Source: Kocuria marina (GTDB lineage Bacteria > Actinomycetota > Actinomycetes > Actinomycetales > Micrococcaceae). Taken from it: DNA of 64,000 bases. The notes below the pieces were generated by a model. That model did not search any database and was not told the DNA's origin. It saw only the letters and a program-made list of their open reading frames with translations. Below, piece after piece: positions 614 to 6,140 of the stretch (position 1 is the stretch's first letter; every line of letters starts with the position of its first letter). The DNA is taken from positions 186,001 through 250,000 of the forward strand of contig NZ_JROM01000016.1 of assembly GCF_000786655.1 (NCBI RefSeq). The letters are read 5' to 3'. The translations under genes were made by a program, and so were the position numbers.

Positions 614-3442
614 ATGTTATCCCCCGCCGAACGGTACATGGCCGCGAAGGCTCGCGCGGCCCACGCGAGCACGGAGCTGTCGGCCTTCGAGAACACCGTG
701 GACTTCGAACTGGACCCGTTCCAGACGCAGGGGTGCCGCGCTCTCGAGGAGGGTCGGGGTGTGCTCGTAGCGGCCCCCACGGGCGCGGGCAAGACCGTGG
801 TGGGGGAGTTCGCGATCCACCTCGCGCTGACCCGGGGTAAGAAGGCCTTCTACACCACGCCCATCAAGGCATTGAGCAATCAGAAGTTCCACGAGTTCTC
901 CCGCCGCTGGGGATCGGACCGGGTGGGTCTGCTCACGGGGGACACGTCCGTGAACTCGGAGGCGGACGTGGTGGTCATGACCACCGAGGTGCTGCGCAAC
1001 ATGCTCTACGCGGGCTCCTCCACCCTGATGAACCTGGGTTTCGTGGTCATGGACGAGGTGCACTACCTCGCGGACCGCTTCCGCGGTGCGGTGTGGGAAG
1101 AGGTCATCATCCACCTGCCCGAGCACGTGCAGCTCGCGTCCCTGTCCGCGACCGTCTCCAACGCCGAGGAGTTCGGGGCCTGGCTCGACGACGTCCGCGG
1201 CAGCACGGACGTGGTGGTCTCCGAACACCGCCCGGTCCCGCTGTGGCAGCACGTCCAGGTGGGCCCGCAGCTGCTGGACCTGTTCGTGGACGACACCACG
1301 GTCGAGGAGGCCGCGCAGCGCCATTCGGACAAGCACCGCGACGAACCCGAGGTCAACCCCGAGCTGTTGCGGTTGTTCCGCGCCCAGCACCCCCGCGGGG
1401 GTCGCTCGGGCGGGCGCGGTCCCGGACACCGCAATCGTCGTCGCCACGGCGGGCGCCACCAGGAGCCGCGCACCGGACGGCAGGAGCGGATCTCCCGCCC
1501 CCAGCTGTTGCGCCGGCTCGACGCCGAGGCCCTGCTGCCCGCCATCACCTTCATCTTCTCCCGCGCCGGGTGCGACGCCGCCGTGGCCCAGTGCGTGGCC
1601 GCGGACCTGTGGCTCACCACGCCCCAGGAACAACGCACCCTGCGCGCGTTCGCGGCGGAGGCCACCGCGCACATGTCCACCGCGGACCTCGCGGCGCTGA
1701 ACTACGAGGACTGGTACCAGGGGCTCATCCGGGGGATCTCCGCCCACCACGCGGGCATGCTGCCGGTGTTCAAGGAAGTGGTCGAGCAACTGTTCTCCGA
1801 GGGGCTCATCAAGGCCGTGTTCGCCACGGAGACACTGGCGCTCGGGATCAACATGCCCGCCCGTTCCGTGGTGCTCGAACGCCTCGACAAGTTCAATGGT
1901 GAGGCCCGCGTGGACATCACCCCGGGGGAGTACACCCAGCTCACGGGGCGCGCGGGCCGGCGCGGGATCGACGTCGAGGGCCACGCCGTGGTGCTGTGGC
2001 GGGACGGCATGAACCCCCAGGCCGTCGCGGGACTCGCGTCCACGCGCACGTACCCGCTCAACTCGAGCTTCCGGCCCACGTACAACATGTCCACCAACCT
2101 GATCGCGCGCTACGGTGCCAAGCGCTCCCGGTCCATCCTGGAGACCTCGTTCGCGCAGTTCCAGGCGGACCGCTCGGTCGTGGGCCTGGCCAAGCGGGTG
2201 CGCTCGCAGGAGAAGACGCTGGAGGGCTACCGGGAGGCCATGACGTGCCACCTGGGGGACTTCACGGAGTACGCCGCGCTGCGCCGTGAACTCACGGCGG
2301 AGGAGAAGTCCGCGAGCAAATCCCGCTCGGCGCGCCAGCGCAACGACGCCGCGGTGGCCCTGCAGGATCTGCTGCCCGGTGATGTGATCGAGATCCCCCA
2401 GGGTCGCAACGCCGGGTGGGCCGTGGTGCTGCGGGAGGACGCGCACCCCTTCGACCCGCGCCCACACATCCTCACCGTGGACGGCAAGCTGCGCCGGGTC
2501 GGTGTCAACGACCTGGACGGTTCCCTGGAACCGGAATCCCGGATCAGGATCCCCAAGCACTTCTCCGGCAAATCGCCCCAGGAACGCAAGGACCTCGCGG
2601 CGACCGTGCGGGCCGCGTTGCGCGAGCACCGTCCCGCGCGCGCCCGCTCGGGAGGTCACGCGATCCGATTCGACCGGGGGACCTCGGCGCGCGATCACCG
2701 GATCGACGACCTGCGTCGACGGTTGCGCTCGCACCCCTGCCACGGCTGCTCGGACCGCGAACAGCACGCCCGCTGGGCGGAGCGCGCGTGGAAGCTCGAG
2801 AAGGACACCCAGGCGCTGCGCAAGCAGATCGCCGGGCGCACCGGGAGCATCGCCGCGACCTTCGACCGCGTATGCGCGGTGCTCACGCACTTCGAGTACC
2901 TGAGCCCGGACGAGTCCGGTCACCTGCAGCCCACGGCGGCCGGCGAGCAGTTGCGCCGCCTCTACGGCGAGCGGGACCTGCTGCTCGCGCTGTGCTTGCG
3001 GGACGGGTTCCTGGACGGTCTGGACGCCCCGGGGCTCGCGGGGGTCATGACGGCGCTCGTCTACCAGCCCCGGCGCGAGGACCAGGGCGCGCGCCCCAAG
3101 ATGCCCACCGCCCACATGGAGGAGTCCGTCCAGACCCTGCTCGACAACTGGTCCGTACTCTCCGCACGCGAGGCCGAGCACCGGTTGCCGCTCACCGCGG
3201 CCCCCGAGCTGGGGCTCGCGGACGCCATGTACCGCTGGGCCCGGGGCGCCACCCTGACCCGGACGCTCACCGGCACTGACCTGGCCGCGGGGGATTTCGT
3301 GCGCTGGGCCAAGCAGACCGTGGACGTGCTGGACCAGTTGCGCGGCGTGGAAGGGCTCGATCCCGAGCTGCGCGAGACCGCGCACCGGGCCATCGAGGCC
3401 GTGCGCCGCGGTGTCGTCGAGTACAGCGTCTTCGACCAGTAA
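614..3442 (+). CDS. helY: Ski2/Mtr4-like DEAD/DEVH-box RNA helicase HelY
   Basis: This is a 942-residue superfamily 2 helicase of the actinobacterial HelY type. Visible motifs are the Q-like segment LDPFQ (~34), Walker A APTGAGKT (54-61), motif II DEVH (~147), motif III SATVSN, and motifs V and VI (ETLALGINMPAR and QLTGRAGRRG). These are followed by an Mtr4-like C-terminal helical domain. A basic Gly/Arg-rich insertion (~residues 262-295) sits between the RecA domains and may contact RNA. Family role: ATP-dependent unwinding in RNA processing or decay; the bacterial substrate is not established. It follows tatC in the conserved order and appears to be transcribed from its own leaderless promoter. 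Confidence 0.93.
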   Translation: MLSPAERYMAAKARAAHASTELSAFENTVDFELDPFQTQGCRALEEGRGVLVAAPTGAGKTVVGEFAIHLALTRGKKAFYTTPIKALSNQKFHEFSRRWGSDRVGLLTGDTSVNSEADVVVMTTEVLRNMLYAGSSTLMNLGFVVMDEVHYLADRFRGAVWEEVIIHLPEHVQLASLSATVSNAEEFGAWLDDVRGSTDVVVSEHRPVPLWQHVQVGPQLLDLFVDDTTVEEAAQRHSDKHRDEPEVNPELLRLFRAQHPRGGRSGGRGPGHRNRRRHGGRHQEPRTGRQERISRPQLLRRLDAEALLPAITFIFSRAGCDAAVAQCVAADLWLTTPQEQRTLRAFAAEATAHMSTADLAALNYEDWYQGLIRGISAHHAGMLPVFKEVVEQLFSEGLIKAVFATETLALGINMPARSVVLERLDKFNGEARVDITPGEYTQLTGRAGRRGIDVEGHAVVLWRDGMNPQAVAGLASTRTYPLNSSFRPTYNMSTNLIARYGAKRSRSILETSFAQFQADRSVVGLAKRVRSQEKTLEGYREAMTCHLGDFTEYAALRRELTAEEKSASKSRSARQRNDAAVALQDLLPGDVIEIPQGRNAGWAVVLREDAHPFDPRPHILTVDGKLRRVGVNDLDGSLEPESRIRIPKHFSGKSPQERKDLAATVRAALREHRPARARSGGHAIRFDRGTSARDHRIDDLRRRLRSHPCHGCSDREQHARWAERAWKLEKDTQALRKQIAGRTGSIAATFDRVCAVLTHFEYLSPDESGHLQPTAAGEQLRRLYGERDLLLALCLRDGFLDGLDAPGLAGVMTALVYQPRREDQGARPKMPTAHMEESVQTLLDNWSVLSAREAEHRLPLTAAPELGLADAMYRWARGATLTRTLTGTDLAAGDFVRWAKQTVDVLDQLRGVEGLDPELRETAHRAIEAVRRGVVEYSVFDQ

Positions 3443-3490
3443 GACAATGCCGGGGGCGGGGGTCCCGCGCGCCCGGCCGGAGGGAAACAC

Positions 3491-4711
3491 GTGAAGTCAG
3501 AACAGCAAACCGTGCGGGTGTGGGTCAACGGATCGGTGTACTCGCCCGCGGACCCGTTCGCCACCGCCGTCCTCCTGGACGGTGCGACCGTGGCGTGGGT
3601 CGGTTCCGACGACGCCGCCCGGGCCATGGCCGGCGCGGACGTCACCCCGGGGGATCTGAGGGCCGCCGTGGTCACCCCCGCGTTCGTCGCGCACCACCGG
3701 GTGGACGGGTCCCGGCAGCTGCCGCGTGCCGAGCACGGCTACGGAGCCGTGGAACTGCTGAGCTCGGACCCCGACGCGCTCGACGCCGCGACGCGGGAGG
3801 TCCGCGCGGACGGGCTGCATGCCCTGCCGGTCCTGGTGCGCCGCGCACGGGACACCGAGCAGCTGGACCCCCCGGCCCTGCCGTCGCCCACCCTGGGGTT
3901 CGACGCCGCTCCGTTCGGTGATCCCGCCGCCCTGGCCGATGCCGCGCGGGAGCACCTCGTGGCGTGCGCGCGGGCGGGACTGCAAGCGGTGCTCGTCCTG
4001 CCTCCGTCCGAGGACGGTTCGTCGGACGAGGGCGGCCCGTCCGGGGACGGTTCGTCGGGAGAGGGCTCGACCGGGGACGTCCCCTGTGAGAACAGGTCGG
4101 CCGGAACCGCGGGGCAGGACGCGGCGTCGTCGTCGGAGGATCCCCGCGTGGACGCTCTGCTGGACGCTGCGGACGCCGCCACGCAGGAGCTCGGCGGCCG
4201 CGCGTTCCATGCGCGGGGGCACCGGATCGTGGGCGTCGAACGGTTGTCCGAGGCCCAGTGCGAACGGCTGGCCGGTCTCGCGATCACGGTCTCGTGCGAG
4301 CCCGGGCGGGCGCCGCTGCGGGATCTCTCACGCGCCGGCGTGCCCGTGACGCTCATGACCGACGACCCCAACCCGTGGACCGCCGTCAAGACCGCCCTCG
4401 AGGCCCCCGACGAGCACCTGCGGACCTCGGCCCGCGCGGCCTTCCTCGCGCTGACCCGCGGGGTGTGGCGCGCCCACCGCGGGGGCACACCCCTCGCGGG
4501 GCAGCTCGCGCCGGGCGCGGAGGCCACGCTCGCGGTGTGGGACGCCGAATCCGTCATGGTGCAGCAGGCCCAGGGCACGGGCGCGTCGTGGAGCACGGAC
4601 CCAAGGGCACGCACGCCTGTCCTGCCCGCGCTCGACGATTCCCGCTTGCCGCGGTGCGAGGCCACCGTGGTGGCCGGGACACTCGTGAGCGGCGCGGAAC
4701 CGCGCCCATGA
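3491..4711 (+). CDS. Amidohydrolase-like protein with degenerate metal site
   Basis: This 406-residue protein has the outline of the composite-domain amidohydrolases. It has an N-terminal beta-sandwich segment (VWVNGSVYSPADPF), a TPAFV strand end, a TDDPNPW segment where the family has its conserved Asp, and a C-terminal GQLAPGAEATLAVWD sheet. The usual HxH after TPAFVD is replaced by AFVAHHRVDG, and the later EH pair reads RIVGVE, so catalysis is doubtful. A Ser/Gly/Asp-rich insert occupies about 4012-4146. The GTG start at 3491 has GGAGGG about 7 nt upstream. It lies between helY and ppm1; no function can be assigned. Confidence 0.75.
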   Translation: MKSEQQTVRVWVNGSVYSPADPFATAVLLDGATVAWVGSDDAARAMAGADVTPGDLRAAVVTPAFVAHHRVDGSRQLPRAEHGYGAVELLSSDPDALDAATREVRADGLHALPVLVRRARDTEQLDPPALPSPTLGFDAAPFGDPAALADAAREHLVACARAGLQAVLVLPPSEDGSSDEGGPSGDGSSGEGSTGDVPCENRSAGTAGQDAASSSEDPRVDALLDAADAATQELGGRAFHARGHRIVGVERLSEAQCERLAGLAITVSCEPGRAPLRDLSRAGVPVTLMTDDPNPWTAVKTALEAPDEHLRTSARAAFLALTRGVWRAHRGGTPLAGQLAPGAEATLAVWDAESVMVQQAQGTGASWSTDPRARTPVLPALDDSRLPRCEATVVAGTLVSGAEPRP

Positions 4712-4726
4712 CGTCGCGTTTTCATC

Positions 4727-4755
4727 TTGGTCCTGATCGCCCCTGACGTTAGACT
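4727..4755 (+). promoter_or_regulatory. Promoter of ppm1: TTGGTC-N17-TAGACT
   Basis: A -35 hexamer TTGGTC (4727-4732) is followed, after exactly 17 bp, by the -10 hexamer TAGACT (4750-4755). This is the clearest sigma-70-type promoter in the window. Initiation near 4762 would leave a ~138-nt leader before the ppm1 GTG, containing G+C-rich inverted segments around 4800-4860. Confidence 0.65.
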
Positions 4756-4899
4756 GAGTTCTTACTGCCGGGTGGGTTCATCCGTCCTTAGAAAACAGCG
4801 CGCGCCCTTCGGGCCGCTCTGGTCCGAAGGCGGATGGGCCCGCCCAGTGGTCTGTCCGGGCTCGGGTGCCCGGCTGCCAGCGGCATGAAAGGACGCCCG

Positions 4900-5640
4900 G
4901 TGCGAGTTCTCACCATCATCCCCACGTACAACGAACGTGAATCGTTGCCCACGGTCATCAAGCGGCTGCGCGCCGCCGTGCCGGACGCCCACGTGCTGGT
5001 CGCCGACGACAATAGCCCGGACGGTACCGGTGACATGGCCGATGCCATGGCCGAGCAGGACGGCAACATCCACGTCCTGCACCGACCCGCCAAGGAGGGC
5101 CTGGGGCCCGCGTACCTGGCCGGTTTCGCGTGGGGTCTCGAGCGCGACTACGACGTCCTCGTGGAGATGGACGCGGACTGCTCCCACCAGCCCGAGCAGT
5201 TGCCGTTGCTGCTCGACGCCGTGCAGCAGGGCGCGGACATGGCCATCGGTTCGCGCTACGTCCCGGGTGGGCGCACCGAGAACTGGCCGCTGCCGCGACA
5301 GCTGATCTCGCGCGGTGGCAACATCTACTCGCGTGTCCTGCTGGGCACGTCCATCCACGACATCACGGGTGGCTTCCGCGCCTACCGGGACACCACGTTG
5401 CGGGCCCTGGACCTGGACTCGGTCCGCTCGCGCGGCTACTGCTTCCAGATCGACCTCGCGTGGCGCGCCGAGCGCCTGGGGCTGAAGATCGTGGAGGTGC
5501 CCATCACGTTCGTCGAACGCGAGGAGGGTGCGTCCAAGATGAGCAACGACGTCACCGTGGAGGCCGCCACGAGCGTGGCCAAGTGGGGCCTCACGGCCCG
5601 TGCGCGCACGCTCGCCGGGAAGCTGGGCCTGGGCCGCTGA
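4900..5640 (+). CDS. ppm1: Polyprenol monophosphomannose synthase (GT2 glycosyltransferase)
   Basis: This 246-residue GT-A enzyme transfers mannose from GDP-mannose to polyprenyl phosphate, the lipid-linked donor for lipoglycan and protein mannosylation. It starts with IIPTYNE and shows the nucleotide-binding DDNSPDGT (36-43), the metal-binding DAD motif ([13 protein letters not shown]) and ITGGFRAYR. It is the catalytic domain only, with no fused acyltransferase domain. GTG 4900 is chosen because GAAAGGA sits 7 nt upstream and the product begins directly at the first beta strand; an upstream in-frame ATG at 4888 would remove that spacing. rbpA follows convergently, as in other actinobacteria. 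Confidence 0.92.
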
Positions 5641-5804: not shown

Positions 5805-6140
5805 TCAGAGAGCGTGCTGCTCCTTGTAGAACGCCAGCCGCTGCTCGAGGGTCTGCTCGAGTTCCTCCATGCTGCGCCGCTCCAGGAGCATGTCCCAGTG
5901 GGAGCGCTGGTGCTTCTCGTTGGGGTTCTCGGGCTTCTCACCGTTGACCAGGATGGCTTCCTGGCCGGTCTTGGTGGTCCACACCGGGGGGATCTCCGCC
6001 TCCGCCGCGAACATCACGGACACGGACTCGCCGTCCGCGGTGCGGTATTCCACGCGCTGACGCGGCGCGGGCTCCACCCCGGCCTCGGTTTCCATGGACT
6101 GGGAGCCCAGGCGCATCCCTCGTAGGCTGCGATCACTCAC
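5805..6140 (-). CDS. rbpA: RNA polymerase-binding protein RbpA
   Basis: This 111-residue, actinobacteria-specific transcription factor binds the beta subunit and group 1/2 sigma factors and stabilises the open complex. The N-terminal tail carries the conserved SLRGMRLGSQSMET. It is followed by the compact RbpA core (YRTADGESVSVMFAAEAEIP) and the basic linker plus sigma-interaction helix (KHQRSHWDMLLERRS...EELEQTLEQRL). The start is GTG on the minus strand with AAGGA 8 nt upstream. The gene is monocistronic, bounded by a convergent terminator and its own upstream promoter. Confidence 0.97.
   Translation of the reverse strand: MSDRSLRGMRLGSQSMETEAGVEPAPRQRVEYRTADGESVSVMFAAEAEIPPVWTTKTGQEAILVNGEKPENPNEKHQRSHWDMLLERRSMEELEQTLEQRLAFYKEQHAL

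What the first reader, a model, noticed from the sequence alone, without database searches (positions are those of the whole stretch)
3491..4711. Amidohydrolase-like gene that has lost its metal ligands
The composite fold edges (VWVNG, TPAFV, TDDP, GQLAPGAEATLAVWD) remain, but the HxH and EH ligand motifs read AFVAHHRVDG and RIVGVE, and a Ser/Gly/Asp insert interrupts the barrel. An intact frame of 406 codons with normal codon use argues against a dead gene. It may be a non-catalytic scaffold or use a different chemistry, next to helY and ppm1.
Basis: partly seen in the sequence, partly recalled or inferred. Interest (0 to 1): 0.5.

Follow-up and report, generated by a model that had tools for sequence, protein, structure and literature searches.

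The report
Dead amidohydrolase kept for its tail
This Kocuria gene is the shrunken, metal-less form of a bacterial hydrolase that relatives still carry intact; natural selection guards a short tail loop rather than the old active site, so the protein most likely has a second, non-enzymatic job that can now be tested.

Summary
Window 3491-4711 (+, 406 aa, Kocuria) is a shortened member of an Amidohydro_3 (PF07969) subfamily, between helY and ppm1. Full-length relatives (532-602 aa; K. rosea group, Arthrobacter and others) keep each metal ligand in 33-34 of 34 sequences. In 44 short forms HxH-His2, beta-5 His and beta-6 His survive in 0, 1 and 0. AlphaFold gives a confident, complete amidohydrolase fold (pLDDT 83; VIA Z 27). 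The Ser/Gly/Asp insert is a disordered, near-neutral loop and does not break the barrel. The gene is not dying: dN/dS 0.22-0.38 overall, 0-0.14 in residues 357-406 (five pairs). A subfamily-specific loop (WSTDPRARTPxLPALD) is as conserved in short forms (0.78) as in full ones (0.79). 388 of 395 family genomes keep this C-terminus. Short forms also occur in three other families. A helY+ppm1 tree rejects one origin of the family's short forms (AU p 5.5e-8); gene trees do not. Best reading: a pseudoenzyme kept for a non-catalytic binding or scaffold role carried by the composite domain and this loop. Partner unknown; alternative chemistry not excluded.

The parts
3491..4711 (+). short, ligand-less Amidohydro_3-type pseudoenzyme (406 aa)
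3479..3484 (+). ribosome-binding site GGAGGG, 6 nt before the GTG start
   Evidence: read directly
3503..3670 (+). N-terminal part of the composite beta-sandwich (residues 5-60), moderately conserved in short forms
3671..3718 (+). beta 1 / former HxH site (residues 61-76; H69 kept by position, second His lost)
4016..4141 (+). Ser/Gly/Asp-rich insert (residues 176-217), disordered in the model, pN/pS about 1; overlaps a 33-bp tandem repeat at 4004-4066
4220..4240 (+). HRIVGVE, counterpart of HRLEHAE (beta-6 His ligand lost, G248)
4349..4363 (+). beta-8 TLMTD, counterpart of the segment ending in GSD; Asp kept by position (D291)
4307..4708 (+). constrained C-terminal part (residues 273-406): pN/pS 0.22 (273-356) and 0.14 (357-406)
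4562..4636 (+). subfamily-specific loop (residues 358-382), QQAQGTGASWSTDPRARTPVLPALD; mostly low pLDDT, equally conserved in short and full forms
5805..6140 (-). rbpA (name recalled), present near most orthologues

Best explanation
The gene encodes a pseudoenzyme. SHOWN: it descends from a full-length Amidohydro_3 gene at the same place. It has lost the beta-1 second His, beta-5 His and beta-6 His ligands, and 204 positions of the K. polaris full form have no counterpart, chiefly the segment after beta 1 and the beta-4 region. It is nonetheless under purifying selection, strongest in the C-terminal part and a subfamily-specific loop, WSTDPRARTPxLPALD. INFERRED: metal-dependent hydrolysis has gone, and the protein is kept because the composite domain presents this exposed loop to a partner (a product of the same gene neighbourhood, or its own oligomer). 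It would work like the inactive dihydroorotase-like subunit that Pseudomonas aeruginosa aspartate transcarbamoylase needs. In full-length relatives the same non-catalytic role would coexist with catalysis, which explains how the active site could be discarded more than once while the gene stayed.
For: Ligands near-invariant in 34 full forms and lost in 44 short ones. Confident complete fold: pLDDT 83.4, pTM 0.83; VIA Z 27.2, rmsd 3.6, 319 residues to 3hpa_A. dN/dS 0.22-0.38 overall in five short pairs; mean pN/pS 0.14 in residues 357-406 over 28 pairs, where pS is not lowered (0.488 vs 0.472 overall), so selection acts on protein, not DNA. Loop conservation 0.78 in short vs 0.79 in full, while barrel beta 2-5 falls from 0.67 to 0.34. 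D370, R372 and P379 in 44 of 44 short forms. C-terminus kept in 388 of 395 family genomes, 370 of 373 good ones. One match of this subfamily in the own genome. Short forms with the same retained C-terminus in families f6, f36 and f50, with open frames down to 272 residues. helY+ppm1 tree rejects one origin of the family's short forms, AU p 5.5e-8. C-terminal tree keeps K. rosea-type full genes and short genes in one Kocuria clade, support 98.
Against: No partner or activity is shown. In other families the neighbours differ (lnt, ppm1, or D-lysine 5,6-aminomutase), so no single partner gene is fixed. Two near-complete genomes of one genus (G086, G109; also the 85%-complete G131) give no C-terminal hit; G086 keeps HxH, beta-5 His and beta-8 Asp but lacks the loop, so the loop can be lost too. 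G299, 99% complete, gives no C-terminal hit. The loop has low pLDDT in both models, so its structure is unknown. The gene tree on shared columns groups all 44 short forms (one change, support 99), against several losses.
Confidence: 0.68

Rival explanations
1. The protein is still an enzyme with a rebuilt site (for example from H68, H69, E88, H244 and D291) and different chemistry.
For: H68 and E88 are invariant (at most one exception) in the 12 short Kocuria rows of the window's clade and differ from the full forms; H155 and H244 are kept there too. H69 and D291 of the old site remain in the window protein.
Against: None of these is conserved across the 44 short forms (H68 12, H69 7, E88 12, H155 15, H244 23, D291 12 of 44). 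Residues 76-175 have a mean pN/pS of 0.54 against 0.22 and 0.14 in the C-terminal part. In the three f50 forms (open frames 272-295) the HxH, beta-5, beta-6 and beta-8 patterns were all not found.
Confidence: 0.12
2. A slowly decaying remnant kept only because its loss would upset translation or transcription of ppm1.
For: Barrel part relaxed (pN/pS 0.54), near-neutral insert (1.03; 1.40 as dN/dS in the closest pair), gene in the middle of a conserved gene string.
Against: Protein selection in residues 357-406 is stronger than in the K. rosea-group counterpart (pN/pS 0.14 vs 0.23), and in 273-356 similar (0.22 vs 0.19), with normal synonymous divergence. D370, R372 and P379 are in 44 of 44 short forms. 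The model folds well.
Confidence: 0.12
3. One origin: the short form arose once and spread between lineages by replacement at this locus, so recurrent loss is only apparent.
For: Shared-column gene tree: one change, support 99. Similar deleted segments (about 83-200, 261-296 and 403-424, K. polaris numbering) in most of the 17 short forms listed. Gene tree over 96 rows does not reject one clade, p 0.25, and there the f6 form lies in a starred set of 12 short rows, nearest by path to short forms of g4.
Against: helY+ppm1 tree rejects one clade (p 5.5e-8). C-terminal tree puts all 26 Kocuria genes, full and short, in one clade (98). An all-Kocuria clade is not rejected on the shared columns (p 0.37). 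By C-terminal identity the f6 and f36 short forms are closest to full-type genes, not to other short forms. Long branches and shared relaxed columns can attract.
Confidence: 0.25

Closest known systems
Full-length orthologues in the same place (K. rosea group, Arthrobacter, Pseudarthrobacter, Paenarthrobacter; Amidohydro_3, solved relatives 3icj and 3igh)
   Same: Same gene neighbourhood (helY, ppm1), same composite domain and WSTD loop, same fold
   Different: They keep FVDSHVH, FHVIGD, HRLEH and GSD (or close variants), and are 126-196 residues longer than the window protein
Inactive dihydroorotase-like subunit (pDHO) of Pseudomonas aeruginosa aspartate transcarbamoylase (PMC7053772, abstract and outline read)
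   Same: A bacterial protein homologous to an amidohydrolase-superfamily enzyme (superfamily placement recalled) that is inactive yet needed for a partner's activity
   Different: pDHO's partner is known; it belongs to the dihydroorotase branch, not Amidohydro_3; no large barrel loss is stated in the abstract
CRMP proteins of animals (5x1d, 6jvb among Foldseek hits; non-enzymatic role recalled)
   Same: Amidohydrolase fold used without the dihydropyrimidinase reaction (recalled)
   Different: Eukaryotic, full-size barrel, other subfamily (recalled)

Membership tests
Amidohydro_3 (PF07969), actinomycete subfamily linked to helY, ppm1 or lnt | Profile match over the curated cut-off | tested here: met
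   Residues 216-406 alone match positions 285-471, E 2.5e-11, 44.2 bits vs cut-off 29.7; a six-frame search of the genome also gives 42.3 bits. The whole protein gave no PF07969 hit in the first scan.
Amidohydro_3 (PF07969), actinomycete subfamily linked to helY, ppm1 or lnt | Composite beta-sandwich plus barrel fold | tested here: met
   The 50 rows shown align at Z 24.7-27.2 over 289-327 residues, with titles of amidohydrolase-type enzymes.
Amidohydro_3 (PF07969), actinomycete subfamily linked to helY, ppm1 or lnt | WSTDxRxxxxxLP C-terminal loop | tested here: met
Catalytic metal-dependent amidohydrolase | HxH, beta-5 His, beta-6 His and beta-8 Asp ligands | tested here: not met
   Only the first His of HxH and the Asp remain by position.
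Catalytic metal-dependent amidohydrolase | Measured metal and turnover | not testable with these tools
   needs purified protein
Pseudoenzyme (conserved fold, catalytic residues lost, gene under selection) | Loss of catalytic residues with purifying selection | tested here: met
pDHO-like assembly subunit | Obligate complex with a partner enzyme | not testable with these tools
   No complex was predicted; works-like claim only.

The most novel reading that the evidence does not exclude
An actinomycete-wide enzyme family is bifunctional. A conserved exposed loop on the composite domain carries an old non-catalytic role, and the catalytic barrel is optional. Several lineages (Kocuria, further groups of genera in its family, and members of three other families) independently discarded the metal site while keeping the loop almost unchanged, shrinking the protein from about 560 residues to open frames as short as 272.
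Probability: 0.45. Interest if true: 0.7.

Novelty: new variant of a known kind. Interest (0 to 1): 0.55.

Why it matters
Genes of this kind tend to be named 'amidohydrolase' on fold alone. Here a large natural experiment (same gene neighbourhood, ligand-bearing and ligand-less versions in species of one genus) separates a catalytic from a non-catalytic function and points to one 25-residue loop as the part to test. It warns against transferring enzyme names to the short forms. It would add a case to the bacterial amidohydrolase-fold proteins used without catalysis, of which pDHO is the one I could document.

Tried and rejected
Dead gene: rejected by dN/dS and the conserved C-terminus. DNA-level constraint (a ppm1 promoter inside the C-terminus): not supported, as synonymous divergence there is normal and no sigma-70-like site was found in 3300-5000 (other promoter types are not covered). 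A paralogue that supplies the lost activity: the own genome has other Amidohydro_3 matches, the strongest at C23 (287.7 bits), but one gene with this C-terminus; the others were not studied. Solved relative of the loop: nothing below E 0.49, and the NapD hits look like chance. Deletion boundaries as evidence of independent loss: not usable, they are similar in most short forms.

Literature: search listings only, save PMC7053772 (abstract and outline) and PMC10211241 (passages). Searches for Kocuria/amidohydrolase/helicase/pseudoenzyme (0 papers), helY/amidohydrolase/ppm1 (4), SCO1424/SCO1423/SCO1421 (4, none with SCO1424), amidohydrolase/polyprenol phosphate mannosyltransferase/RbpA/downstream (0) and Kocuria rhizophila/amidohydrolase (8) gave no listed paper whose title or abstract start describes this gene. 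General pseudoenzyme and inactive-amidohydrolase searches are. The library holds open-licence papers only.

Rows dropped: L041 (full, g8) was left out of the alignment behind without a strong reason; one search finds its HxH, beta-5 and beta-8 patterns (beta-6 pattern not matched). L040 and L046 lack enough helY for the tree; L045 was also left out of the tree. L221 has no loop and dropped out. L047 gave no orthologous ORF and was not used further, although one search finds its genome's C-terminus. L189 (G299) has no helY or ppm1 hit and looks like another amidohydrolase. The 669-residue length printed for K. rosea is a start-codon choice of my script; 569. Gene starts are nearest-start guesses; K. 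atrinae (L064) is counted as short with a start inside the gene. Open frames of G489 and G705 look short, but their loci keep ligand patterns and are not counted as short.

Full report
WHAT IS THERE. The window belongs to a Kocuria (nearest named relative: K. marina KCTC 9943; its protein is 88% identical). It follows helY by 48 nt and precedes ppm1, with rbpA on the other strand beyond. In the 80 named loci, helY is found in 78, ppm1 in 78 and rbpA in 72; some of the misses are loci cut by contig ends (presence was tested, not order).

WHAT IT COMES FROM. The C-terminal half alone matches PF07969 (Amidohydro_3) positions 285-471 at E 2.5e-11. The whole protein matched no Pfam or NCBIfam family over its cut-off. 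Full-length genes in the same place (K. rosea, K. polaris, K. dechangensis and, among the named non-Kocuria loci, 61 of 64) show the HxH pattern. The three misses are L074 and L102, near contig ends, and L099, which keeps the other patterns. Of the 16 named Kocuria loci, 4 are full and 12 short. In a set of 79 loci, lengths are bimodal: 44 short (285-439 aa) and 35 full (532-602 aa, correcting one start).

LIGANDS. On an alignment of 78 of these loci (34 full, 44 short; L041 left out), full forms have His at HxH position 1 in 34 of 34, position 2 in 33, beta-5 His in 34, beta-6 His in 34 and beta-8 Asp in 34. Short forms have 7, 0, 1, 0 and 12 of 44. The window protein keeps H69 and D291 by position and has V71, V169 and G248 at the others. 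K. polaris residues 78-200, 261-296 and 402-424 have no counterpart in it.

STRUCTURE. The window protein, with an alignment of 35, gives pLDDT 83.4 and pTM 0.83. Apart from the first three residues, stretches under pLDDT 50 lie within 181-211 (the Ser/Gly/Asp insert) and at 358-375 (the conserved loop). It aligns over most of its length with intact amidohydrolases: 3hpa_A Z 27.2, rmsd 3.6, 319 residues; rows within 1 of this Z are tied. So the barrel survives, and the insert is a loop after beta 5, where the lost FHVIGD ligand segment was. The K. rosea full form gives pLDDT 72.5 and pTM 0.76, with a less sure composite domain, nearest 3icj and 3igh, Z 27.4 and 26.9. Model coordinates could not be read, so an alternative site could not be measured.

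SELECTION. Nei-Gojobori counts by my own script: five short pairs give dN/dS 0.22-0.38 over the whole gene and 0-0.14 in residues 357-406. Mean pN/pS over the 28 pairs of eight short Kocuria genes: residues 4-75 0.37, 76-175 0.54, insert 1.03 (10 pairs with enough aligned codons), 217-272 0.54, 273-356 0.22, 357-406 0.14. Synonymous divergence in 357-406 (pS 0.488) is like the whole gene (0.472), so the conservation is at protein level. Six K. rosea-group full genes: 0.23 overall, 0.19 in 351-510 and 0.23 in 511-562 (K. polaris numbering). Column conservation, weighted by genus: loop 358-382 is 0.78 in short and 0.79 in full, while barrel beta 2-5 is 0.34 and 0.67. D370, R372 and P379 are present in 44 of 44 short forms. 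The insert overlaps a 33-bp unit repeated 1.9 times, in line with drift by slippage (inference).

SPREAD. A profile of the C-terminal 84 positions (A4) hits 388 of 395 sampled genomes of the family (Micrococcaceae, recalled), 370 of 373 good ones, and 152 of 394 sampled genomes of the class, 142 of 360 good ones. Without a hit in the family: G019, G086, G109, G131, G299, G352 and G364. G019, G352 and G364 are 65-76% complete and G131 is 85%. G086 keeps HxH, beta-5 His and beta-8 Asp and lacks the loop, so loop loss without ligand loss also happens. Neighbours were typed in seven loci of other families: lnt follows the gene in four, ppm1 in one, D-lysine 5,6-aminomutase alpha in two; ppm1 is found in 4 of the 14 loci L225-L238 and helY in none.

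HOW OFTEN LOST. A helY+ppm1 tree of 77 loci needs 4 changes of state (3 forced by starred branches). Without the distant outgroup it needs 3, and one clade of all 43 short forms is rejected, AU p 5.5e-8; one clade of the 19 Kocuria short forms is not rejected, p 0.70, so Kocuria may have lost the site once. A gene tree on 295 shared columns instead joins all 44 short forms, including the one from another family (one change, support 99), but does not reject an all-Kocuria clade, p 0.37. The C-terminal columns alone (130) give 3 changes and put all 26 Kocuria genes, full and short, together (98). With the other families added (96 rows, 131 columns) 6 changes are needed, one clade of short forms is not rejected, p 0.25, and the f6 form falls among short forms of this family although its C-terminal identity is highest to full forms. 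I read this as several losses, most likely with some long-branch attraction in the gene trees, but one origin with later spread is not excluded. That the full form is ancestral follows from its ligands being those of the superfamily.

HOW IT MOST LIKELY WORKS. Shown: same descent and gene neighbourhood, lost ligands, intact predicted fold, strong C-terminal protein selection. Inferred: no metal hydrolysis; the composite domain presents the WSTD loop for binding, as an assembly or regulatory subunit. The closest described case found is the inactive dihydroorotase-like chain needed for Pseudomonas aeruginosa aspartate transcarbamoylase (PMC7053772, abstract). The partner is not known; Ppm1, Lnt, HelY, RbpA or the protein itself are only candidates from position.

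VERDICT. The new points are the matched conservation of the loop in ligand-bearing and ligand-less forms, the within-genus split, and the same reduction in other families.

Noticed in passing
L221 (G086), also genomes G109 and G131: The reverse case: G086 keeps HxH and the beta-5 and beta-8 ligands, but its C-terminus lacks the WSTD loop; G109 and G131 of the same genus also give no C-terminal hit.
   Followed up: partly
L032 3558-5000, L034 1-966: In two other families the full-length gene sits beside D-lysine 5,6-aminomutase alpha subunit, and its other neighbour has a weak zinc-dehydrogenase match; a possible clue to the substrate of the live enzyme.
   Followed up: partly
L045, L233, L236, L237: In further families the gene is followed by an apolipoprotein N-acyltransferase (lnt) gene, perhaps an older gene order that the window's family changed.
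   Followed up: partly
L225, L226, L227: Smallest forms seen: open frames of 272-295 residues without ligand patterns, in which the WSTD loop remains.
   Followed up: partly
L064 4501-5603 / L009: In K. atrinae the N-terminal part lies in a different frame from the rest; a frameshift, a sequencing error (genome 79% complete) or a local defect.
   Followed up: no
window 4806-4830: An inverted repeat, read by eye and not folded, between the gene's end and ppm1, without a T run.
   Followed up: no
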